Assembly: GCA_016788165.1 (NCBI GenBank) | Contig: JAEUTH010000036.1 | Location: 1-64,000, forward strand | Direction: 5' to 3' | Length of the DNA: 64,000 nt | Source of the DNA: Bacteroidia bacterium | GTDB lineage: Bacteria > Bacteroidota > Bacteroidia > AKYH767-A > OLB10 | Part shown: positions 426-10,388 of the stretch, piece after piece | Numbering within the stretch: the stretch's first letter is position 1 | Layout of the letters: every line of letters begins with the position of its first letter | Translations under genes and position numbers: made by a program | Notes under the pieces: generated by a model | What the model saw: the letters and a program-made list of their open reading frames with translations, nothing else | Told to the model about the DNA's origin: nothing | Databases searched by the model: none

Positions 426-480
426 AGCTCTTTTGCAATTTTTGGTCTGAGCGTTGGCTCGTGCGAATTGCAAATGTGCT
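426..480. repeat. Nested hairpin repeat, left copy
   Basis: The outer arms are AGCTCTTTTGCAATT (426-440) and AATTGCAAATGTGCT (466-480). They pair over 15 positions except for two T-T mismatches (429/477 and 431/475). Inside is a second stem, GAGC-GTTG-GCTC (449-460), followed by GTGCG. It lies 26 bp beyond the stop codon of the nuclease-like gene at 506, so it may also act as a 3' mRNA structure. The same architecture, with different stem bases, recurs at 9825-9886 on the far side of the operon. Confidence 0.75.
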
Positions 481-505: not shown

Positions 506-1531
506 TTATAATTCATTAATTTCCTTTTCAATTAAACGATACTTGTCTTTTACATCTTCTCCTGAATAAAAGTCTAGTAAGTCTTTTTTGGTTAGCGTTC
601 CTTGACTTAAAAAGCGTTTCAGATACTCTTGGTTGAATTCCATTAAAAGGATTGATTTTTCCAATTGTTTCAAAATTGCTTTGTTGTTGTCAATGTTATT
701 ATGAACCAAAGATTTTATTGTCAACACTTCGTTTATGTCTTTGATGATACGGTTTACCATCATTGCCAAAATATCTTTATCTAATTCGATTTCTTTTGCA
801 TTTAAAGCAATGTCTCTCGCTAACATATACGCAATAGCCAAATTGCTGTAATCTCCTTTTTGTGAATTGATAATGGCAACAAAACCAACTCCCGGAATGT
901 AACCCACATTTTCAAAATTCTTAAGAATGGAGTTTTCTACTAAGGAAATATCAAAAACAATCAAACTTACTTTGCTGTCTCTGTTGGCTTGTGCTTCTAT
1001 TAACTGACTCCAAGCCGTATCAGATTTTCGAGTAAAAATGTCTTTGCTTTCAATGTCTCCTAAACGAACGCTTTTATCAAACTTACATTCAATAGCTATT
1101 TTCAAATCAGGCGTTCCGTTTACTTCACAAATTATATCACCTGTTTTGTTTTTCGGTAAATTCCCTGCTGTATTACCCGTTAAAATAGCTCTATCTTTTA
1201 ATTTTTTGTCTGCAAAGTATTGGTTTAAGAACTCTGCAATTTCATCTTCTGCTAAAACGCCTTTAATAGTTGATTTATAGAAAAGTTCTTTTTTTATTTC
1301 AAAAATCATCTTCAAACTTTCGAGTTCTGTTCCTAACTCATTGGTTGTTTTTGACAGAAAAGAGGAAATTCGGTCTTCCATTAGAGCCAACACTCCAATA
1401 TAAATTGCTCTAAGCAATTTATCATCTCTTTCAGTTGCAGGAAGATTGTCAAAGTAATTGAAAACAATTTGGTTTTCGATTTCAAATTCTTTGATTTCAA
1501 TTCTTTTGAGTTGCTGGTTTATTTTAAGCAT
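506..1531 (-). CDS. PD-(D/E)XK nuclease-like protein, last gene of the defence operon
   Basis: This 341-residue soluble protein carries a restriction-endonuclease-like signature. GD at 131-132 sits in a short strand (GDIICEV), followed by a strand ending in E148-C-K150 (IAIECKFDKS), which fits the D-Xn-E-X-K metal-binding core. The N-terminal half is predicted helical and the C-terminal third is charged and helical, perhaps a coiled coil for protein contacts. The ATG lies 2 bp after the KTSC gene stop, so it should be co-transcribed with the SIR2-HerA and restriction-modification genes. Nuclease activity is inferred from the motif alone. It could be a DNA-end or methylation-dependent nuclease, or an inactive sensor. 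I cannot name a family. Confidence 0.75.
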   Translation of the reverse strand: MLKINQQLKRIEIKEFEIENQIVFNYFDNLPATERDDKLLRAIYIGVLALMEDRISSFLSKTTNELGTELESLKMIFEIKKELFYKSTIKGVLAEDEIAEFLNQYFADKKLKDRAILTGNTAGNLPKNKTGDIICEVNGTPDLKIAIECKFDKSVRLGDIESKDIFTRKSDTAWSQLIEAQANRDSKVSLIVFDISLVENSILKNFENVGYIPGVGFVAIINSQKGDYSNLAIAYMLARDIALNAKEIELDKDILAMMVNRIIKDINEVLTIKSLVHNNIDNNKAILKQLEKSILLMEFNQEYLKRFLSQGTLTKKDLLDFYSGEDVKDKYRLIEKEINEL

Positions 1532-1533
1532 TG

Positions 1534-1743
1534 TTAAACTTTAGAATATCTATAAACTCCCTTTATGTTTTGTGCCAAAAATTGACCGTGGGAATCGGCT
1601 TGCATTAATCCTTGATAAATATGCTGAGGCACATCAAAATACTGATAGATTGAATTATTCAAAAATTCAATCTCTAATGTTGAAGTGTTTTCATCATATC
1701 CAATTGAAGCGATATTTGATGATGTTACAGGTTTTCTTTCCAT
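1534..1743 (-). CDS. KTSC-domain small protein
   Basis: This 69-residue protein is essentially one KTSC domain. The N-terminal KPVTSSNIASIGYD block is followed by a LEIEF strand, YQYFDVP, a helix containing the family-typical LMQADSHGQF, and a closing IKGVYRYSKV. KTSC domains are small beta-rich modules of unknown biochemical role, often found as stand-alone proteins. Here the gene sits 8 bp after herA and 2 bp before the nuclease-like gene. It is therefore placed as an accessory or adaptor of the defence module; that role is inference. The full domain is present and there is no sign of decay. Confidence 0.8.
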   Translation of the reverse strand: MERKPVTSSNIASIGYDENTSTLEIEFLNNSIYQYFDVPQHIYQGLMQADSHGQFLAQNIKGVYRYSKV

Positions 1744-1751
1744 TTTTATAT

Positions 1752-3617
1752 TTATTTAATTATACGTTCAATTTTCGGGTTTTGAGCTCTCCAAGTTTCA
1801 ATAAACTCTTCATAATTTGGATCTTCTTCCATTTTATTACCCCATCCGCCAGGGCGAAGCGAGTCTTTAGATTCAATTTCATCAAAAACAATTGGGTCTT
1901 GGCTATCTGGTCGTCTATCTTTTGAAGGAGCCTTTATAATTGTTCTCATAGGAAGTTTAACTGCTTCACCTAAAATTATTGCTTCGCCTGTTTTTAAAAT
2001 CGGCAACATACTAGTAAGACCTTCGAGGTTATCGGAAACAGCACTTGTAATATGGCTTCTGTCAGTAGAGTTTGAAAGTCTTAAAGCGAAGAAAGTACCA
2101 CATTGAGAAAGAATAGTAGAGTTTATTTCGGATGGTCTTTGGCTTACTATCATTGTTCCAATACCATATTTTCTACCCTCTTTTACTATTTTTTGGACAA
2201 TAGAAAGAGCACTTCCTTCAGAGTTTAAATAATTGTGAGCTTCTTCCATTAACAATAATAGTGGTCTTTCCTTTCCTCCTTGAGATAGGTTTCGAGACCA
2301 AAATAAGGCATCATAGATAATCCTTAACAAAACTCCAATTATTGTGTTCAATATTGTAATTGGAACACCTGATAAATCTAAAATGGTTATTGGTTTATCA
2401 CTTCCTATCCAACCTTTCAATAAGTCATCTAAATCCTTGTCAACCTCCCCATCGTGTTTTGGAGTCAAATCTGTAGGTTTGAAAATGAAATCGAATCTTG
2501 GAATTCTCAACTTTGAGCCAAGTGAATGAAGCTGTTGTCCATTTGTTAAAGGAGATTCATTTTGGTACTGAACGCGGTCACCATTAGCTCCATTTGAATT
2601 GATTTTTTTGAAGATAGGAGGAAAACCATTAACTGGGTCTCCTATAATTTCATTTCCATCTTTATCTAATTCATAAGCCAAAGGTTTTCCTTCTTTATCT
2701 TGATACAGTTTACCAAGTGTCTGTGTATATAAGTCATACCAAAGATGATTTAAACTAAAAGGAACTGGAGAATCAACATTTAAGGTATCAGTATTCAACC
2801 CTTTTCTAGGATATTTTTCTAAACTCTTTCTTTTTTCAGACAATACTCTTTCTAATATTGTATTGTAATCTTTTTCATTTGAAATTTTTCCGAAACTAAC
2901 CTCACACAGTTCGTCAAAATTTAAGGCCCAAAACGGAAGTAGAAGTTCTTTTTCAACACTTCCTGCACTTTTATCTGCATTTATCTTATAAATATTGGCT
3001 TTATCTTTCAATGCCTGACCATATTCACCGTGAATATCAAAAACCAAAATTCGAGAAGATGGATATTTCTCTGTATCTGATAAAGCATTTAATAAGCTTG
3101 CAACAGTTGTAGATTTACCCGAACCTGTTGTTCCAACAACTGCAGAATGTCTTGTTATTAATTTGTTTACATCAATTAATGCTGGAATAGATTCGGCACC
3201 TGCTATATGCCCAACATTGACAAAATAAGGTTTGTCTGGTTGTCCGTAAATTCTTTTTAAATCTTCCTCTGAGACTAAATGAACTTCGTCACTTATAGTT
3301 GGATATTGGGAAATACCTCTTTGAAATTCACCTGCTCTTTGTCCTTCACCAACTAATTGAATCGTAATCCATCTATTGCCATAAGGTTGATTTTCAACTT
3401 GATTTTCAGGTACAGCACCTGCACCGACTTGTGTAATAATGCCAAATAAATAATTATATCCAATAGGTATTTTTACAAAGCTCCCAATTTGTCCAATTCG
3501 ATAACCCTCTCCGTTAACATAAGTCAAACCTGAAAGAGAATCATTAACCATTGCTACCCTTATGGTTGTACCAGTTACATCTTGAACTGTTCCTAAGTAT
3601 GTAGAATTATTTTTCAT
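1752..3617 (-). CDS. herA: HerA-family ATPase of a SIR2-HerA (Nezha-type) defence module
   Basis: This 621-residue FtsK/HerA-type P-loop ATPase has an N-terminal beta-barrel HAS-like region (about 1-130). Walker A is GTTGSGKST (162-170), followed by the HerA-typical VFDIHGEYG (192-200), Walker B LLLLMEEAH (453-461), an arginine-finger region KEGRKYG (479-485) and the sensor motif VSQRPSE (491-497). HerA proteins form hexameric rings; in known SIR2-HerA systems the ring organises SIR2 subunits into a large complex that degrades NAD+ on phage infection. The start codon lies inside the 3' end of the SIR2 gene (11-bp overlap), which indicates translational coupling and matched stoichiometry. All catalytic motifs are present. 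Action on DNA versus a purely structural role cannot be read from sequence. Confidence 0.92.
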   Translation of the reverse strand: MKNNSTYLGTVQDVTGTTIRVAMVNDSLSGLTYVNGEGYRIGQIGSFVKIPIGYNYLFGIITQVGAGAVPENQVENQPYGNRWITIQLVGEGQRAGEFQRGISQYPTISDEVHLVSEEDLKRIYGQPDKPYFVNVGHIAGAESIPALIDVNKLITRHSAVVGTTGSGKSTTVASLLNALSDTEKYPSSRILVFDIHGEYGQALKDKANIYKINADKSAGSVEKELLLPFWALNFDELCEVSFGKISNEKDYNTILERVLSEKRKSLEKYPRKGLNTDTLNVDSPVPFSLNHLWYDLYTQTLGKLYQDKEGKPLAYELDKDGNEIIGDPVNGFPPIFKKINSNGANGDRVQYQNESPLTNGQQLHSLGSKLRIPRFDFIFKPTDLTPKHDGEVDKDLDDLLKGWIGSDKPITILDLSGVPITILNTIIGVLLRIIYDALFWSRNLSQGGKERPLLLLMEEAHNYLNSEGSALSIVQKIVKEGRKYGIGTMIVSQRPSEINSTILSQCGTFFALRLSNSTDRSHITSAVSDNLEGLTSMLPILKTGEAIILGEAVKLPMRTIIKAPSKDRRPDSQDPIVFDEIESKDSLRPGGWGNKMEEDPNYEEFIETWRAQNPKIERIIK

Positions 3618-4830
3618 CTAATTTAGTTTGATTATAGCCAATAAGTGCTTGAAGAAAATCACCCAACTTTGAAAAATCTCCTAGTTTCAAAAGGTGTTTT
3701 TCTTCTGAATCTTCCGTGGACGGTACTTTATGAATGCAATTTGCCAAGTTATCTTCCTCCTCCATTTCTAATGGGATTTTCCATTTCCCTCTTACAGTTC
3801 CAATCATAGCTTCATCAAAAGACCATAAAGCAAGGTTGTTTCTGTTTTTGGCTAATTGTATTGCTTTAGGATAACGCTCAATTAGATTTTTTTCTGGGTC
3901 TTCAAAGGTTAAAGTCTCGAATAACATAGCTATAACCATAGAATTGGGGTTTGCCTTTAAAGCACTTAAAATGGTATCATTCAAATGCTCATCATTAAAT
4001 GAATAGCCTGATAATACCATTAATGAATTTGGCAGTCTTAAAAATCTGTTAAGCTGGTCTATTAGAGCTAAATATGGCATTTTTCTACTTTGTTCATATT
4101 TCAAATGAGAAGGATATATCAAATATGAATCACCATTAGCCTTTGTTAAACTCGACCTATAAACTTCTTTGTTTTCTTTTTGAAACCAATTTATTGAACC
4201 GTGAATTTTCCATAGTCTAGTCCAATGTTTTGGAATCAAATTATCCTCAACTGCACGCAAGTCAAAGAAAGATTGTCTTGAACCTACAAATCCATCAAAA
4301 TATGGAATTGATAAATCTTCAAACGCTTCTTCAAGAAGCAAATCATAGTTTGTAGTAAATACTTCAATTGGTTTTTCTCTATCAATTGAAATCCATTGGG
4401 CAAGTTTATGGTATGGCGTATCTTTATCGGGGAGATTTACTTCAAGCTTTTCGACTATTTTATTGCAAATATTTTTTTCAAGTTCAACCAAATTTTCTTT
4501 TGTGAAACCTCTTACAGAATTTCCAACAGAGACCTCCTTTAATCCTCTAAGAAAGCTCAAAATATCTTCAATATTTTTCTCGTCTTTTTCTGAAAGGATT
4601 ACTTCATCAATTAGCTTGTCAAAATCGTTTTTCTCTTCTGTTTTAGATTTTAATTCATCTGTAACAAACTGAGTTAGTTTTGCCACATCAGGTATTAGAG
4701 GCCATTTATCATCTGGCATATTTACTGCTAGTGGGCAACCTGCCGAAATAAAAAAACCTAATGGTTTTTTGTCCTGTGATAGTGTTTGTCTTAAAAACTT
4801 TATATGTTTTACTGGGTCGTGTGTTGCCAT
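3607..4830 (-). CDS. SIR2-family NAD+-consuming effector of a SIR2-HerA module
   Basis: This 407-residue protein has a defence-type SIR2 domain. The NAD-binding entry is GFFISAGCP (25-33), in place of the classical GAGxS, with a conserved PLIPDV nearby. FTTNYD (158-163) is the typical TTNYD motif, KIHGS (208-212) carries the predicted catalytic H210, and SGYSFND (274-280) matches the GxS-D strand. Anti-phage SIR2 proteins act as NADases that drain the cell of NAD+. The last about 70 residues are acidic and less family-like, possibly the HerA contact or a regulatory tail. The gene starts 6 bp after the methyltransferase stop and overlaps herA by 11 bp. Loss of enzyme activity is unlikely because N161, D163 and H210 are all present. 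Confidence 0.92.
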   Translation of the reverse strand: MATHDPVKHIKFLRQTLSQDKKPLGFFISAGCPLAVNMPDDKWPLIPDVAKLTQFVTDELKSKTEEKNDFDKLIDEVILSEKDEKNIEDILSFLRGLKEVSVGNSVRGFTKENLVELEKNICNKIVEKLEVNLPDKDTPYHKLAQWISIDREKPIEVFTTNYDLLLEEAFEDLSIPYFDGFVGSRQSFFDLRAVEDNLIPKHWTRLWKIHGSINWFQKENKEVYRSSLTKANGDSYLIYPSHLKYEQSRKMPYLALIDQLNRFLRLPNSLMVLSGYSFNDEHLNDTILSALKANPNSMVIAMLFETLTFEDPEKNLIERYPKAIQLAKNRNNLALWSFDEAMIGTVRGKWKIPLEMEEEDNLANCIHKVPSTEDSEEKHLLKLGDFSKLGDFLQALIGYNQTKLDEK

Positions 4831-4836
4831 ACTATA

Positions 4837-6444
4837 TTATTTATTTCTATTTAGTCTCCTTGCCGAAAGCTTCTTCCAAATACTATCCGCAAGTTTTATT
4901 TCTTTATCCGTAAAGCCGTATCCGTCTTTCAGGATTCGCTTGTTGGTGATTTTTAAAATTTCATCAATGCTTTTTTTATCTCGCATCATTTTGTCAATGG
5001 TGGCAAGTAAATCAGAATTGTCGGTTTGGTAGGGGAGCAGTATTTTTTCTGCTTCGCTTGGCATCAATTCCAATACGCCTCCGCCATAACTACGACCAAC
5101 AATTTCAGAAAAAGCCAAAGACAAGGAATTGTAAAAACTTGCTATGAAAGCGTTTTTGTCCGTGTCTTTTTTCATAAATACACGGTGCATTGTGTCGGTT
5201 GTATATGCGTTTGCTTCGTTTAGAATTAAACGAGGATAGAGATTGTTTCTTCTGATAAATAACGCATCAGAAAGTTTGATGGAAGGAATCACAAACCAAT
5301 CATCACGAATGCCTGTTTTGTAGCCTTTGTTTACGCCCATTGATTCACCTAAACGAATGTATGAGTTCGCTCCTTTGTGTCCGTTAATTTTCTCTTTTGC
5401 CGGAAATACCAATAAGTGGGCTTTTGCCTTGGTTTGTCTATTAAGTTTCCAATCCTTTTCCGTGAAAATTACACTGTTGACCTGAACACTTCTGCCAACC
5501 ATTGGTTTTGCGTATGCTTTCAGGTCGTAAGCTTCTACAACAGGCAAAGGAACAGTGAAGTAATCATTTGCTCCTGTGGTAATGCCAACTTCTACACTGG
5601 CATAATTACTAATTGTCGGAACTTTTCGTTTTTTGGCAATCTGTTCCAAAAAGTCAATTTCTTCTTGCTCTAAAAAGTAATAAGTCCATTTATTTGACTT
5701 GAAATCTATCTTTTTGGAAGGACTTTTTAGGATGTTTACATCAAGCTTTTCAAGGTCTGAAGCATCTCTTAGTTCAAGGTGCTCAATTAAGTGCGAATCA
5801 CTTCCGTTTTTCTCGCAAAGCAATAAAACCACTTCTTGCTGAATGTCAGGGAAAACCAACTTTTCAAAAGAGATGATATTGATTTTATTGTAGAAATGTG
5901 CCAAAAACTCACGGAGTTGTTGAGCATACGAAACCTGTAACAATTCCGCAGGAATTACAAAACCAATCTTTCCTTTTTCTTTGAGTAACAAACTTGAACC
6001 AACCACAAAAGAGACCCAAGCATTGGTCAGTTTTGAATATTTCAGTTTAGCCCGATTGAAAACTTTAATGGCTTCATTTTGCTGTTCTTCCTGAAAATAT
6101 TGGTAGCGAATGTAAGGCGGATTGCCCACCACTAAATCAAACTTCTGTGTGGTTTCATTGCAATACAAATGAAAATCTGTATTGATTACATCCTTGTTAT
6201 TGAGTTTAATCTTTTCCGCTTTTTCTGCTTCCACATCATCAAATTCAATGGCTGTTACTGAGTTGAATTTATGGTTGTTCTCTTTCAATTGTTCAAGGAA
6301 AACTCCATCACCACAACTTGGTTCTAAAATTTCATAGTCTGAACTTCCATTGATGCCCCATTTCAAAATGAATGCAGCAATTGGCTCAGGCGTGTAAAAT
6401 CCACCTCTCAATTTCTCGGCTGTTGCGTTCTTAATTAGCTTCAT
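4837..6444 (-). CDS. Stand-alone N6-adenine DNA methyltransferase (Eco57I-type partner)
   Basis: This 535-residue gamma-class N6-adenine methyltransferase has an AdoMet motif I in EPSCGDGVF (41-49), preceded by the GGFYTPEPIA motif X region, and the catalytic NPPY at 108-111 in DLVVGNPPYIRYQYF. The C-terminal half (about 260-535) is the expected target-recognition region. It contains the SIxxSDALFIRRN-like block seen in Eco57I/TaqI-type enzymes. Eco57I itself, as I recall, pairs a fused enzyme of about 997 aa with a methylase of about 544 aa; the gene here and its neighbour match both sizes. The partner methylates the strand left unmodified by the fused enzyme. It overlaps the fused enzyme gene by 14 bp. 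Confidence 0.9.
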   Translation of the reverse strand: MKLIKNATAEKLRGGFYTPEPIAAFILKWGINGSSDYEILEPSCGDGVFLEQLKENNHKFNSVTAIEFDDVEAEKAEKIKLNNKDVINTDFHLYCNETTQKFDLVVGNPPYIRYQYFQEEQQNEAIKVFNRAKLKYSKLTNAWVSFVVGSSLLLKEKGKIGFVIPAELLQVSYAQQLREFLAHFYNKINIISFEKLVFPDIQQEVVLLLCEKNGSDSHLIEHLELRDASDLEKLDVNILKSPSKKIDFKSNKWTYYFLEQEEIDFLEQIAKKRKVPTISNYASVEVGITTGANDYFTVPLPVVEAYDLKAYAKPMVGRSVQVNSVIFTEKDWKLNRQTKAKAHLLVFPAKEKINGHKGANSYIRLGESMGVNKGYKTGIRDDWFVIPSIKLSDALFIRRNNLYPRLILNEANAYTTDTMHRVFMKKDTDKNAFIASFYNSLSLAFSEIVGRSYGGGVLELMPSEAEKILLPYQTDNSDLLATIDKMMRDKKSIDEILKITNKRILKDGYGFTDKEIKLADSIWKKLSARRLNRNK

Positions 6445-9418
6445 ACAATTCTTTGATTAATGGGATTAATGAATCTTCACTACCTAAATCGTATAATTTA
6501 GCTAATAGCTTTTCTAGGTTGGCTTTCTCTCTTACAAATTGTCCTTGCATTGGAGTTAAAGCTCTTTTATTTCCTGCGTTTGCATCTATTTGGTCATAAA
6601 TGCTGATTAATTCTTTTTGAGTTTCAACGATTTTGTTGTGAAGTGCTTTTTGTTTTGTGTCTGAAAAATCAATCTTTCTGATGGGTAGATTTTTCAAAAC
6701 CTTAGTTCCTCTTGCTATGTAACCACCTCTGAAAACTTCGCCATATAAAGCACTAAACCACTCCAAATATTTTGAGTTGAGAATAGCTTGAATGTAGTAA
6801 ATAGAGTAGTCGGAAGTTGTTGGAATTGCAACTACACAATATCCTGCTGTTCCACCTGACGAAATCAAAGTTCCGTGAACATCTATTGCGTATTTATCCC
6901 CAACAGAGAGAACACCAACAATAATTTTTGAAGGAAGTCCACAACTATCCAAACTTTGATGTCTGCCGTATCTGTGCCATTCATTTTTTGTTTTTGGCTC
7001 AGGTTTTATGTCTCGTTTCGGATTATTTAAAATGGTTTTATGCTTTTGCAGATAGTCATAAGCTAAAGGAAATTTCTTTTGAATTGTTGTTAGAGGAATT
7101 ACATCTACGCCTGTTTTGGTAGGTTCATAAGGATAAATTACCCTTGCATTCGGTTTGAATGTTCGGTAAGTGTATAAATTATCTTCGCCTGATGAAGTTT
7201 GAAAGTAGGGTTTTGTTATTTCCTTTTCAATCTTGTAATCAACACCTTTTTTCGTAAAATAGAAGTGCTTCTTGTCCTCTTTAGTTGGCGTAAAAATGTA
7301 TACATCATTTGCACTGGTCTGAATACCATTAAAAATATTATCGCTTCCAACCAAATCGTTAAGTTTTACACTTTGAGAAACGATTTTATTATAGGCGTTA
7401 GTCAATTCGGGTGGAACTAAAACCCAAACTTCACTATCCAATTCATCTGTTTTCTTTGTGCCGTATTTTGCTGCCTCCGGCTCTCTTACTTTCCAACTTT
7501 TCAGGCTTTTTACTTCCGCATATTGGAAAGTCTTTTGAGGTTTCTTGTTCAAAATTAGCAAACAAGTGTAGGTTGTTTTATCTGCAAAAACCTGATTTGC
7601 ACCAAATGATAAGATTGAATGTAAATACTCTTTGTCTGTGAGTAATTCACGAAGTTTTTTACCTGCTCCAACTTTTGTAAACTTGCTCGGAACGATATAG
7701 CCTAAAACTCCATCATCAGCCAACAAGTTAATTCCTTGCTCAAGGAAAAGGAAGTATTTATCAAACTGCTTATATGCTGAATCGTAGTTGGTTTTATAAA
7801 GTGGCAATTCAAGCGGGGTAATGTTTTTCATATCCTCCGACTTCATATAAGGTGGATTGCCAACAATGACATCAAAGCGAAGTTTTGAAAAATCAAACGG
7901 ATTGATAATTACCTGGTCTTTCTTGTTGGTTACTTGTTTCGGGTTCAACAAACTGTTTCCGAAAAAGATGTTTTCAGAAAGGTCGGGTAAAACTGGTTTT
8001 GTTTTGTTGGTTGAGTTTACATCTTCACCCTCAAGTAATTTGAGAAGCAATCCAAATTTGGCTGCTTCAACTGCATTATAATCTTTATCAACTCCATAAA
8101 TACAATTCAATAAAAGTTGTCGCTTAATTTCAAATGGCAGTTTGTAGGTATTGATATTAGTTTGAATGAGTTTTGACTTGTCTTTTTTCAGGTAGTAATC
8201 AATCAGAATGTCATTGAGTAATTGAAAAAGTTCCAATAAAAACGCACCTGAACCGCAAGAAATATCAGCGAATTTCAGCTTTAGAATTTCCTTATCTGTT
8301 TTCCCTTCACATTTTTTCAAAACGGTATTTCTTAAAATATCGCTTATGATAAATGTTGGTGTGGTGATAATGTCACGGTCAACATTTTCAGGTTTTTTGA
8401 CTAAAACAACAGCACCGCTTTGTACGGTCAATTTTTCTGAAAGGAAGATTTCATAAATGCTTCCAAGTACATCAGAAGAAAAAACACTGAATGAATAGGG
8501 GCTTTCAGGATAATACAATTGTTTGATGATTGTCCAAAATACCGAACTGATATTTTCTACAATCTTATCTTTTAGCAATTGGTCAAAAAGTCCTGAATTA
8601 TATCGTTTGTCGGCTTCTTCAAATTTCTTTATGAGTGCTTTGAAGTCGTTTGTGTTGGCAAACTTCAAAAGCGTTTGATAATCTTCTAAATTCCTGTCCT
8701 CACAAACACGCAGAAACAAAACCCTGTTCAAATAACTTTGAACAATGTCATTCAGTTGTTGCTCGTCAATTTTTGGGTCGTGTTTGTAAATTTCAGAACC
8801 AAGGGCTTTTCTCCATTCGTTGATTTGGTTTAGAAATAAATTGTCAATCGAGTACTGATTGATTTTGCTTTCAATTTCTTTCCACTCTGTTTCAAATTCA
8901 CCTGAATAAACTGATTCCTTTCCTAAAAGCTGTTTGATTTCTTCAAACTTACTTTCGTATTCTGTGTAATGATATTTTTTTACAAGTGCCTTTGGGTAAG
9001 TATCTTCTTTTTCGACTTTTACGGAAGTGTCATATATGATTAAATATTCAAAGTTTGAGAGAACTGAAATTTTCAACTTGGCTGTAAATCCGTATCGTCT
9101 GACTTGTTTTGCTGTGTCGTTGTTTGACTCAATAGAAACACAAGGTTTTTTTGCTTCCAAAAAATATTTTCTTTCAGAAAAAAGTCGGAAAGTGTAATCA
9201 GGTTTTTTGGAGTGCTCGGAAGCGTTTGCTTTCAATGCTTCTTCCAAAATTACTTCTCGTTCGTTGGTTGGTTTACCCGCATTGTTTTTAATGTCCCAAC
9301 CAAGCAACTCGAAAAAAGGGTCTAAGAAATCACTGCGAAGCAGTGTTTCATTATACTTGCTTGTCAAGTAATAATCCCTGTCGGCTGTATATTTTTCTAT
9401 GAGTTGCTTTATTGTCAT
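6431..9418 (-). CDS. Eco57I-like type IIG fused restriction endonuclease-methyltransferase
   Basis: This 995-residue single-chain restriction-modification enzyme begins with a PD-(D/E)XK nuclease domain: P73-D74 in KKPDYTF, then E88-A-K90 in YFLEAKKP. A helical linker follows (about 190-350). The methyltransferase domain has motif I ADISCGSGAF (384-393) and catalytic NPPY (521-524). The C-terminal 350 residues are the target-recognition domain, with the family-typical SSGGTAGYCVVAIP stretch. Such enzymes bind an asymmetric site, methylate one strand and cut some distance away, using or stimulated by AdoMet. Overlap of the ATG with the regulator stop (ATGA type) and the matching partner methylase downstream support one RM system. 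All catalytic residues seem intact. Confidence 0.92.
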   Translation of the reverse strand: MTIKQLIEKYTADRDYYLTSKYNETLLRSDFLDPFFELLGWDIKNNAGKPTNEREVILEEALKANASEHSKKPDYTFRLFSERKYFLEAKKPCVSIESNNDTAKQVRRYGFTAKLKISVLSNFEYLIIYDTSVKVEKEDTYPKALVKKYHYTEYESKFEEIKQLLGKESVYSGEFETEWKEIESKINQYSIDNLFLNQINEWRKALGSEIYKHDPKIDEQQLNDIVQSYLNRVLFLRVCEDRNLEDYQTLLKFANTNDFKALIKKFEEADKRYNSGLFDQLLKDKIVENISSVFWTIIKQLYYPESPYSFSVFSSDVLGSIYEIFLSEKLTVQSGAVVLVKKPENVDRDIITTPTFIISDILRNTVLKKCEGKTDKEILKLKFADISCGSGAFLLELFQLLNDILIDYYLKKDKSKLIQTNINTYKLPFEIKRQLLLNCIYGVDKDYNAVEAAKFGLLLKLLEGEDVNSTNKTKPVLPDLSENIFFGNSLLNPKQVTNKKDQVIINPFDFSKLRFDVIVGNPPYMKSEDMKNITPLELPLYKTNYDSAYKQFDKYFLFLEQGINLLADDGVLGYIVPSKFTKVGAGKKLRELLTDKEYLHSILSFGANQVFADKTTYTCLLILNKKPQKTFQYAEVKSLKSWKVREPEAAKYGTKKTDELDSEVWVLVPPELTNAYNKIVSQSVKLNDLVGSDNIFNGIQTSANDVYIFTPTKEDKKHFYFTKKGVDYKIEKEITKPYFQTSSGEDNLYTYRTFKPNARVIYPYEPTKTGVDVIPLTTIQKKFPLAYDYLQKHKTILNNPKRDIKPEPKTKNEWHRYGRHQSLDSCGLPSKIIVGVLSVGDKYAIDVHGTLISSGGTAGYCVVAIPTTSDYSIYYIQAILNSKYLEWFSALYGEVFRGGYIARGTKVLKNLPIRKIDFSDTKQKALHNKIVETQKELISIYDQIDANAGNKRALTPMQGQFVREKANLEKLLAKLYDLGSEDSLIPLIKELYEAN

Positions 9419-9726
9419 TTCTTCTTATTCGCTTTAATATATTTGGCTCTTTCCTCTGCTACTTTCAGTGCTTCTATTCCTAAATCTTCGTCTTGAATTT
9501 CATATAAAATCTTGTCACTTAGGAACGAAACCAAAAGTTCGTCTGCGCTGTAATCGTATATGTCGGCAAGTTTAAGAACTACTTCTTTTGTGATTTTCCG
9601 CTCTCCACGTTCCATTTTGCTCAAAATAGCAACGTCAACGTCAAGCAATGCAGCAACTTTCCGCAATGGAAGTTCCTTTTCTTCTCTTATGTGTCTTAGC
9701 TTTTCGCCTATTGTTTCTGTTGACAT
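9415..9726 (-). CDS. XRE-family transcriptional regulator (controller-like protein)
   Basis: This protein has an HTH_3 domain over most of its first 65 residues: IGEKLRHIREEKELPLRKVA, then LDVDVAILSKMERGERKI, ending in LADIYDYSADELL. The tail KVAEERAKYIKANKKK is charged. I favour the ATG at 9726 (103 aa) over the in-frame ATG at 9741 (108 aa): AGGA lies just before it, and the candidate -7 box at 9749-9756 would put transcription initiation close to 9741. It is the first gene of the defence operon and its stop overlaps the next ATG, the position of controller proteins in restriction-modification systems that delay endonuclease synthesis. Repression or activation cannot be told from sequence. 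Confidence 0.88.
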   Translation of the reverse strand: MSTETIGEKLRHIREEKELPLRKVAALLDVDVAILSKMERGERKITKEVVLKLADIYDYSADELLVSFLSDKILYEIQDEDLGIEALKVAEERAKYIKANKKK

Positions 9727-9734
9727 AATTCCTA

Positions 9735-9756
9735 TTGACATAATGTGTCAAAATTA
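9735..9756 (-). promoter_or_regulatory. Candidate operator and -7 box of the defence operon
   Basis: A perfect inverted repeat, TTGACA-TAATG-TGTCAA (9735-9751), overlaps a minus-strand TAATTTTG (9749-9756) that fits the Bacteroidota -7 consensus TAnnTTTG. A direct repeat of TTGACATAAT begins at 9720 and at 9735, 15 bp apart, giving a second half-site towards the gene. The position directly before the XRE gene is that expected for autoregulation. No clear -33 TTTG was found at the usual spacing, so the promoter call is tentative while the repeat itself is certain. Confidence 0.55.
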
Positions 9757-9824
9757 GAAAAAGATTTTTGATTTGTATCCTTTTAATTCAAATTCTTTTC
9801 AACATCCTTGTCGAGCGTTGGGAA

Positions 9825-9886
9825 ATTGGCTCTTTTGCAAAACTTGGGTCGTGTGTCGACTTGTGCGGTTTTGCAAATGTGCCAAT
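9825..9886. repeat. Nested hairpin repeat, right copy
   Basis: The outer arms are ATTGGCTCTTTTGCAAAAC (9825-9843) and GTTTTGCAAATGTGCCAAT (9868-9886). They pair over 19 positions with two T-T mismatches (9831/9880 and 9833/9878), the same two mismatches as in the left copy. The inner stem is GTCG-TGTGT-CGAC (9848-9860), followed by TGTGCG. Stem bases differ from the copy at 426-480 yet still pair, so structure is conserved rather than sequence. GAGCGTTGG occurs just outside the left arm (9813-9821). The element lies about 75 bp upstream of the defence operon promoter region. Confidence 0.75.
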
Positions 9887-10067
9887 GTGTGGCTGGTTAA
9901 AATTACTTTTTAAAATGTGCGGTGGGAAAAATTTTTAAAACATTCGGGTCGGATTTGTGTGTCGCCAAAGTTAGTCCGTAAGTTTTTGTCAAGATGTCAA
10001 AGTTCGTTTTTCAGATGTCTGTTTTTTCGGAGTACGGTCGTTCTTTAGGCTTGCTTACAACTTGTTT

Positions 10068-10160: not shown

Positions 10161-10388
10161 TTAAACATCTAAATCATCTAATGGGCTTTTTATTTCGCTT
10201 AGCTTTTTAGTACTCACTTGTGTATAGATCATCGTGGTTTTGGGTGCGTTGTGTTCCAACAGTTCCTGTATGTAGCGCATATCGGTTCCGGCCTCAAGTA
10301 AGTGTGTGGCATACCTATAGCATGGTATGCAAGGTGGTATCTTTAATAATGGTGTTTTTCCTGTTATGTTTTGCTTGATTAATTCCAC
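10161..10388 (-). pseudogene. Remnant of a tyrosine recombinase/integrase (C-terminal end)
   Basis: The readable C-terminus has YATHLLEAGTDMRYIQELLE, then KTTMIYTQVS with the nucleophilic tyrosine, and ends in IKSPLDDL. This matches the end of IntI/Xer-like integrases common in Bacteroidota. The reading frame breaks near 10317, inside the HxLRH box: the other frame reads KDTTLHTM before a stop, as expected after a 2-bp deletion. Everything N-terminal to about 10388 is missing, so the gene is both truncated and frameshifted. It marks the right edge of the island, with ordinary chromosomal genes following. Confidence 0.8.

What the first reader, a model, noticed from the sequence alone, without database searches (positions are those of the whole stretch)
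506..9756. Seven-gene operon joining an Eco57I-like RM system to a SIR2-HerA module with KTSC and nuclease-like accessories
Seen in sequence: seven minus-strand genes with gaps or overlaps of +2, +8, -11, +6, -14 and -4 bp, led by an XRE gene with an operator-like palindrome. Known: Eco57I-type RM pairs and SIR2-HerA (Nezha) are each established anti-phage systems. Inference: here they form one layered unit, RM first and NAD+ depletion as backup, perhaps with the KTSC protein and the PD-(D/E)XK protein as sensor or regulator. I do not know of a description of this seven-gene combination.
Basis: partly seen in the sequence, partly recalled or inferred. Interest (0 to 1): 0.85.

Follow-up and report, generated by a model that had tools for sequence, protein, structure and literature searches.

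The report
Defence operon ending in plug-in nuclease
Seven packed bacterial genes join a DNA-cutting restriction system to a known NAD-draining anti-virus machine and end in an unnamed nuclease-like gene that also turns up, sometimes almost unchanged, at the end of quite different defence gene sets, which suggests bacteria share it as an interchangeable part.

Summary
The seven-gene operon is real, with the gaps stated, but it is a composite. XRE + type IIG + M.Eco57I-like methylase is an RM system also found alone. SIR2-HerA-KTSC is a SIR2-HerA (Nezha-type) system; KTSC is not an extra sensor but HerA's C-terminal domain encoded separately, since the closest solved HerA (8wiv) carries it fused, as do L004, L008 and L116. 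The full order recurs in 1 of 8 other loci found by SIR2 (L002, same family), so "one conserved layered unit" is only partly supported. The surprise is the last gene, NUC: an unannotated 341-aa PD-(D/E)XK-like protein. In 18 loci it follows different partners, 17 of them within 15 bp: KTSC or HerA-KTSC, OLD nuclease, an SMC/LmuB-like ATPase, an AAA_13 gene inside a type I RM locus, a defence reverse transcriptase, or a 322-aa protein after an SbcC-like ATPase. Its tree does not follow the partner. Two largely unrelated operons carry it at 91% DNA identity over just the ORF; one shares the 249-bp leader too. NUC looks like an exchangeable accessory of defence systems; its activity is untested.

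The parts
9415..9741 (-). XRE/HTH_3 regulator heading the operon (likely true start 9726), perhaps a control protein
   Evidence: weak PADLOC Control_protein hit, 3e-5; L002 homologue starts at the second ATG
9736..9750 (.). operator-like inverted repeat TGACA-N5-TGTCA beside a TAATTTTG -7-like box starting at 9756 (Bacteroidota consensus recalled, not from a call)
   Evidence: in L002 with another spacer
6431..9418 (-). type IIG restriction enzyme-methyltransferase, Eco57I-like (PD..EAK nuclease motif, NPPY)
4837..6444 (-). companion N6-adenine methyltransferase, M.Eco57I-like
   Evidence: M_Eco57I_C 2.7e-37; PDLC03267 689 bits
3607..4830 (-). SIR2 NADase subunit; aa 301-390 variable among close relatives
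1752..3617 (-). HerA ATPase subunit lacking its C-terminal KTSC domain; aa about 211-420 falls into two classes among close relatives
1534..1743 (-). KTSC domain protein, equivalent to residues 628-696 of the solved HerA 8wiv
506..1531 (-). NUC: unannotated 341-aa plug-in protein with a PD-(D/E)XK-like core (D132, E148, K150) between predicted helical arms (the arms rest on a poor model)
427..479 (-). hairpin repeat GCACATTTGCAA..TTGCAAAAGAGC, 26 bp after the NUC stop
9829..9882 (-). second copy of the hairpin repeat, same orientation, upstream of XRE
9813..10061 (-). leader DNA 95.2% identical to the leader of a different XRE-RM-KTSC-ATPase-NUC operon (L113)
10161..10388 (-). C-terminal remnant of a Xer-type tyrosine recombinase; a full-length relative (375 aa) lies at the end of contig C7

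Best explanation
The region is a composite defence operon assembled from exchangeable parts: (1) a self-standing XRE-led Eco57I-type RM system; (2) a SIR2-HerA NAD+-depletion system whose HerA C-terminal KTSC domain is a separate gene; (3) a plug-in PD-(D/E)XK-like protein, NUC, that is also attached to unrelated defence systems, mostly ones with DNA-acting P-loop ATPases. Shown by sequence: the layout, the identity of the core, the split KTSC, and the exchange of NUC among partners. Inferred: HerA with KTSC engages invading DNA and switches on SIR2, which drains NAD+; NUC is recruited by the neighbouring machine as an auxiliary DNA-cleaving or DNA-end-processing subunit; RM acts first and the rest backs it up.
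For: Closest solved pair: HerA 8wiv (660 bits) and SIR2 8w9l (314 bits), both listed for entries 8wld/8woc/8wod/8wof; 8wiv 628-696 matches the KTSC profile at E 5.7e-21. KTSC directly follows or is fused to HerA in 8 of 8 loci found by SIR2, in the 8 plasmid loci opened among the best SIR2/NUC matches (8 of 8) and in 12 of 14 HerA places with E<=1e-100 in 395 phylum genomes (one miss at a contig end, one with truncated HerA). NUC: 18 loci, gap to the upstream partner -8 to +84 bp, 17 of 18 within 15 bp; partners KTSC or HerA-KTSC 11, OLD 2, 322-aa protein 2, SMC/LmuB-like 1, AAA_13 1, RT_UG39 1. NUC tree: partner labels not clustered (7 changes, shuffled mean 6.8), and the two well-supported sister pairs each join different partners. 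NUC is 91.5% and 91.4% identical at DNA level in L113 and L114 over just the ORF (the L113 contig ends 5 bp past the stop). D132, E148, K150 in 18 of 18. Core model pLDDT 70, pTM 0.72; best VIA matches are PD-(D/E)XK nucleases: McrC 6hz4 Z 9.3, 7vsr 8.6, VC1899 1xmx 8.5.
Against: No activity, transcript or phenotype is available. RM and SIR2 parts are mostly unlinked elsewhere. KTSC is not confined to SIR2-HerA: 6 of 37 KTSC matches in 198 genomes lie at HerA places, 31 of 37 elsewhere. Foldseek gave no match at E<=0.001, the full-length NUC model failed (pLDDT 44.7), and unrelated GTPases reach Z 6-7 in the same VIA list, so nuclease activity rests on motif and a moderate fold match. NUC is rare: full length in 3 of 395, 5 of 164, 2 of 42 and 6 of 395 genomes in overlapping samples. 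RT_UG39 is not itself an ATPase. Only 2 of 15 inner branches of the NUC tree are well supported. Defence genes cluster anyway, so adjacency alone does not prove joint action.
Confidence: 0.6

Rival explanations
1. One dedicated seven-gene layered system: RM, SIR2-HerA, KTSC and nuclease co-evolved as a single functional unit.
For: Tight packing and the same order in L002; a parallel nine-gene operon HTH-C5MT-BpuJI-C5MT-KTSC-KTSC2-SbcC-322-NUC in L113; other methylase/RM genes upstream of SIR2 in L005, L016 and L057.
Against: Order in 1 of 8 SIR2 loci; the 12 other IIG places read show no SIR2-HerA; window/L002 DNA identity goes from about 82% over most of the RM part to 91-98% from within MT into SIR2, so the parts have different histories.
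Confidence: 0.2
2. NUC is a control or protection factor (for example restraining partner toxicity or repairing self-damage) rather than an effector, hence its use by systems that already have effectors.
For: It is attached to systems that have effectors of their own (SIR2, OLD, RT) and is more conserved than its partners (NUC 77% and 74% where HerA is 38% and 43%).
Against: Catalytic-type D/E/K in 18 of 18; SIR2-HerA-KTSC occurs without NUC (NUC seen at 3 of 14 HerA places, some cut by contig ends; also L003, L008), so it is not needed for tolerance.
Confidence: 0.25
3. NUC and the leader persist mainly as homology arms that let operons exchange their interiors; NUC has no shared defence role.
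For: Window and L113 share a 249-bp leader at 95% and the NUC ORF at 91%, with other genes between apart from a 54%-identical KTSC and a 35%-identical HTH.
Against: The leader was found in 1 of the other 17 NUC loci (several are cut by contig ends); NUC is intact across phyla (Paracoccus, 63%) with its catalytic-type residues kept.
Confidence: 0.1

Closest known systems
SIR2-HerA (Nezha) anti-phage system; solved pair 8wiv/8w9l/8wld (recalled as Paenibacillus Sir2-HerA, Tang et al. 2023; the tool output names no organism)
   Same: SIR2 and HerA adjacent and overlapping, motifs kept, KTSC domain present
   Different: KTSC is a separate gene; a NUC gene is attached; an RM system precedes it in the same tight gene set
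Eco57I-type RM (type IIG enzyme plus second N6 methyltransferase)
   Same: IIG enzyme with PD..EAK and NPPY motifs, M.Eco57I C-terminal domain in the companion methylase
   Different: XRE-led and continued by SIR2-HerA-KTSC-NUC; the 50-53%-identical plasmid relatives opened have the methylase convergent and no annotated SIR2-HerA
HerA + KTSC + endoDNase variants noted by the Aravind group (PMC9503650, section 27 read)
   Same: HerA coupled with a KTSC gene and a DNase
   Different: [quoted passage not shown] here sirtuin and a PD-(D/E)XK-like gene occur together. Their endoDNase may be another family
McrC / Card1-Can2-type PD-(D/E)XK nucleases (the name Card1 recalled)
   Same: Best fold matches of the NUC core (Z 9.3 to McrC, 8.5 to VC1899)
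   Different: 11-15% identity; NUC is attached to many systems
Defence domains shared across distinct systems (PMC10952713, passages read: NucC, RmuC and others)
   Same: One nuclease-type component found in different systems
   Different: Here nearly the same gene (96-97% protein identity) ends otherwise different operons, rather than a divergent domain family

Membership tests
SIR2-HerA (Nezha) | Adjacent SIR2 and HerA genes of the defence subfamilies | tested here: met
   (PDLC04093 481 bits, PDLC04105 548 bits)
SIR2-HerA (Nezha) | NADase N/H and ATPase Walker A/B motifs present | tested here: met
   FTTNYD, KIHGSINW, GTTGSGKS, LLLMEEAH; alignment to 8w9l
NCBIfam SIR2_antiphage / HerA_antiphage equivalogs (not a definition of the system as a whole) | Score over the curated cut-offs | tested here: not met
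   72 vs 500; 246 vs 850 and 164 vs 800 bits: not a member of these equivalogs; membership is claimed for the system only
SIR2-HerA (Nezha) | NAD+ depletion on phage infection; SIR2-HerA supercomplex | not testable with these tools
   needs experiment
Eco57I-type RM | Type IIG enzyme plus companion adenine methyltransferase with M.Eco57I C-terminal domain | tested here: met
Eco57I-type RM | Cleaves at a distance from a recognised site; site specificity | not testable with these tools
   needs methylome or digestion
PD-(D/E)XK nuclease superfamily (NUC) | Conserved D..ExK motif | tested here: met
   D132, E148, K150 in 18 of 18
PD-(D/E)XK nuclease superfamily (NUC) | The superfamily's core fold | tested here: inconclusive
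   core model pLDDT 70; VIA Z 9.3 to McrC, but Foldseek nothing at E<=0.001 and full-length model poor
RmuC | Match to PF02646 | tested here: not met
   NUC has no Pfam hit at E<=0.1
KTSC (PF13619) | Over the curated cut-off | tested here: met
   96.1 bits vs 25

The most novel reading that the evidence does not exclude
NUC is an interchangeable defence component: a single PD-(D/E)XK protein that docks onto unrelated sensor-ATPase or effector complexes (HerA, OLD, SMC/SbcC-like, AAA_13, perhaps a defence reverse transcriptase), with whole operons reassembled around a fixed leader and a fixed NUC tail.
Probability: 0.4. Interest if true: 0.82.

Novelty: new variant of a known kind. Interest (0 to 1): 0.6.

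Why it matters
It explains a domain of the solved SIR2-HerA complex as a part that can be split off, and it points to an unannotated gene that ends several unrelated defence gene sets. If NUC works with all of them, it offers a handle on how different immune machines share an auxiliary subunit, and a marker for finding further systems. It also bears on the proposal (PMC9503650) that sirtuin and DNase are mutually exclusive partners of HerA-KTSC.

Tried and rejected
Dedicated seven-gene system: weakened by 1 of 8 synteny and RM found apart. KTSC as a separate sensor: replaced by the split-domain reading. Bacteroidota promoter motif (recalled) on the operon strand: a full -33/-7 match only within nuc at 1106, none before SIR2; weak evidence. 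attC/integron-cassette reading of the flanks: the downstream stem at 105-262 folds little better than shuffles (z -1.09, 29 of 200 as good); a pattern derived from L002 has 0 matches in the own genome with up to 3 mismatches (a looser pattern matched the window once); the full-length recombinase on contig C7 is below the integron-integrase cut-off (205 vs 265); hairpins also lie after ordinary genes. Not adopted. RmuC kinship of NUC: no Pfam hit, and no RmuC in the own genome to compare with. Full-length NUC model: too poor to use. NUC in phage records: no match; in viral contigs: none confirmed among 278 stretches that matched the patterns used. Leader in plasmids: no match at E<=1e-5. Solved-structure sequence search with the NUC profile: nothing at E<=1. 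VIA rows of Ras-like GTPases at Z 6-7 show that such Z values are partly background.

Not measured: the upstream genes of SIR2 were classed by HMM only for chosen loci, so no rate of RM adjacency is claimed. Gene lists of unannotated loci come from a simple ORF picker that can miss short or broken genes.

Full report
Observation. Families are and motifs. XRE probably starts at the second ATG (9726), as in L002. The palindrome is at 9736-9750. The window starts at base 1 of a 72,989-bp contig of G000, so nothing beyond 505 bp past the last gene can be seen.

Synteny. A scan of genome contigs with SIR2 gave 8 loci. SIR2-HerA-KTSC is in 8 of 8, NUC in 6 of 8 and XRE-IIG-MT in 1 of 8, namely L002. 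L002 corresponds to G559, of the same family as the window's genome but another genus (same coordinates). DNA identity between the window and L002 is 79-85% from 9800 to about 5900, 91-98% from 5900 to 2900, 69-72% at 2300-2900 inside HerA and 91-94% after that, so the RM part and the SIR2 part have different histories. L003 aligns to the window only as far as 1518, 14 bases into nuc, and then carries another gene.

The RM part alone. IIG relatives at E<=1e-60 occur in 11 of 296 genomes. The 12 places other than the window (33-42% identity) were opened and none shows SIR2, HerA, KTSC or NUC in the fetched 8-18 kb; several are cut by contig ends, and no separate M.Eco57I-like gene was flagged beside them either. 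Plasmids hold 33 records at E<=1e-40. The four opened have the IIG gene beside an N-6 methylase, convergent in three, and no annotated SIR2-HerA.

The SIR2-HerA part. The best solved relatives are 8wiv (HerA) and 8w9l (SIR2), which share entries 8wld, 8woc, 8wod and 8wof. I recall these as the Paenibacillus Sir2-HerA of Tang et al. 2023; I saw that paper only as a reference in PMC11559045, of which I read passages. The profile of the KTSC proteins matches residues 628-696, the C-terminus of 8wiv, at E 5.7e-21, and the fused L004 protein aligns with 8wiv almost end to end. Single-ORF HerA-KTSC is seen in L004, L008 and L116, with shorter ORFs that fuse HerA and KTSC parts in G311 and G334. In 395 phylum genomes, 14 HerA places have E<=1e-100, the window included. 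KTSC follows 12 of these 14; in G333 the contig ends and in G217 HerA is truncated. SIR2 precedes 13 of 14, the exception (G185) being at a contig edge. NUC follows 3 of 14, with some places too near a contig end to tell. Of the 17 weaker HerA places for which a locus was given, 2 show a KTSC match, the fused ORFs of G311 and G334. Eight plasmid loci were opened among the best matches (392 records match SIR2); in 8 of 8, from Alpha- and Gammaproteobacteria, KTSC is the third gene. KTSC itself is wider: 37 matches in 31 of 198 genomes, of which 6 (G000, G004, two in G185, G171, G140) lie at HerA places and 31 elsewhere. HerA residues 211-420 fall into two classes among close relatives (window, L003, L006, L009 against L002, L004, L005) and SIR2 301-390 is variable; these may be segments that set specificity (inference).

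What stands upstream of SIR2 elsewhere. I classed chosen loci only. L005 has a cytosine methylase, HATPase, Z1, DUF4420 and MTaX1 genes; L016 another type IIG enzyme and a 426-aa gene, with 263 bp before SIR2; L057 an N6_N4 methylase overlapping SIR2 by 4 bp. Others have non-RM genes, for example an oxidoreductase in L003, an IS91 transposase in L014, a recombinase in L022 and an antiporter in L063. So RM-like genes recur but are not the rule.

NUC. It has no hit in Pfam, PADLOC, NCBIfam or PHROGs (the L105 and L014 copies none in NCBIfam). Searches with NUC itself found full-length copies in 3 of 395 genomes (plus a 32-aa remnant in G263), 5 of 164, 2 of 42 and 6 of 395, the samples overlapping, and in 1 of 72,556 plasmid records (Paracoccus, 63% identity). 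These are 12 genomes and one plasmid. In 7 of the 13 the partner is SIR2-HerA-KTSC (G000, G224, G393, G559, G607, G625, Paracoccus). In 6 of 13 it is something else: OLD nuclease (G507, cut by the contig end), SMC/LmuB-like ATPase (G489), AAA_13/PDC-S06 between type I RM genes (G427), RT_UG39 with an AAA_15 ATPase gene 309 bp upstream of it (G569), and a 322-aa protein after an SbcC-like ATPase gene (G783, and G676 where that gene is in two ORFs). With five more loci from the SIR2 scan there are 18 loci; in L006 a KTSC-like gene and an OLD gene lie between KTSC and NUC. NUC follows its partner at -8 to +84 bp, 17 of 18 within 15 bp (the L015 and L016 starts used there are not start codons, and the nearest upstream starts in the printed sequence would shorten those gaps). 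D132, E148 and K150 are kept in 18 of 18.

NUC moves between partners. Its identity to the window copy is 97% and 96% in L113 and L114, whose operons are otherwise largely different, and 77% and 74% in L015 and L016, whose HerA is only 38% and 43% identical. The NUC tree needs 7 partner changes, no fewer than shuffled labels (6.8); L016 (SIR2) with L105 (OLD), and L006 (OLD) with L009 (SIR2), are sister pairs at 99/99, the only 2 of 15 inner branches that are well supported. The DNA match to L113 and L114 (91.5%, 91.4%) runs from 8 or 5 bases before the start to 5 bases after or 1 before the stop; for L113 the contig ends there.

Shared shell and a scar. The 249 bp at window 9813-10061 are 95.2% identical to L113 1765-2012; no other of the 17 NUC loci has this leader in the stretch read, L002 matching only over the 54-bp hairpin. 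L113 continues with HTH, C5 methylase, BpuJI-like REase, C5 methylase, KTSC, KTSC2, SbcC-like, 322-aa and NUC genes, gaps -31 to +2. Its HTH is 35% and its KTSC 54% identical to the window's. So two operons share leader and tail and differ between. In L114 the 66 bp just before KTSC are 88% identical to the 3' end of the window's methylase gene (4840-4905), which looks like a recombination scar.

Structure of NUC. The full model failed (pLDDT 44.7). Residues 92-250 gave pLDDT 70 and pTM 0.72. Foldseek found nothing at E<=0.001, its first three rows being BstEII, McrBC and PaqCI. VIA gave McrC Z 9.3 (118 residues, 3.1 A, 11% identity), VC1899 8.5 and Cdn1 8.2, Hjc resolvases at about 7-8, and also Ras-like GTPases at 6-7. 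With the conserved D, E and K a PD-(D/E)XK nuclease is likely, not proven.

Mechanism. Shown: parts, order and exchange. Inferred: HerA-KTSC engages DNA and activates SIR2; NUC cuts or trims DNA for whichever machine it accompanies; RM is the first line. NAD+ depletion by a SIR2-HerA relative is reported in PMC11559045 (passages).

Literature. Searches. [quoted passage not shown] PMC7824862 and PMC10952713 were read as passages; in PMC10853773 and PMC12839542 only term searches were made. In what I read I found no description of the seven-gene combination or of NUC; most subscription papers and all bioRxiv preprints are outside the library.

Noticed in passing
427-479 and 9829-9882 (-): Two same-orientation copies of a 53-54-nt hairpin repeat bracket the operon and are the only exact copies in the own genome; 6 of the 40 other genomes searched have copies, the backward-read control 0 in each. 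9 of 14 sites read lie 15-27 bp after a stop codon, also after ordinary genes. One inner pair changes on both sides: AU 8, UA 3, GC 3, broken 1 of 15.
   Followed up: partly
10161-10388 (-): Remnant of a Xer-type tyrosine recombinase, 88% identical over 52 aa to the end of a 375-aa gene at the end of contig C7, whose contig stops where the leader would begin.
   Followed up: partly
L113:2097-10806: Nine-gene operon HTH-C5MT-BpuJI-C5MT-KTSC-KTSC2-SbcC-like-322-NUC, a parallel to the window operon with other parts.
   Followed up: partly
L114:5531-5596: 66 bp, 88% identical to the 3' end of the window's M.Eco57I-like gene, just before KTSC: a likely recombination scar.
   Followed up: partly
L006:13300-13518 and L113:6132-6350: A second small protein (72 aa, 38% identical to each other), KTSC-like in size and place, no NCBIfam hit, just before an OLD or SbcC-like gene.
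   Followed up: no
window HerA aa 211-420 and SIR2 aa 301-390: Bounded variable segments among otherwise similar proteins, as if recombined; possible specificity regions.
   Followed up: partly
L006:13531-21221: OLD nuclease and then Wadjet JetA- and JetC-like genes follow SIR2-HerA-KTSC; NUC overlaps the JetA-like ORF by 4 bp.
   Followed up: no
L114:3693-5540: A Schlafen AlbA_2 protein with a C-terminal KTSC domain: KTSC is also joined to other proteins.
   Followed up: no
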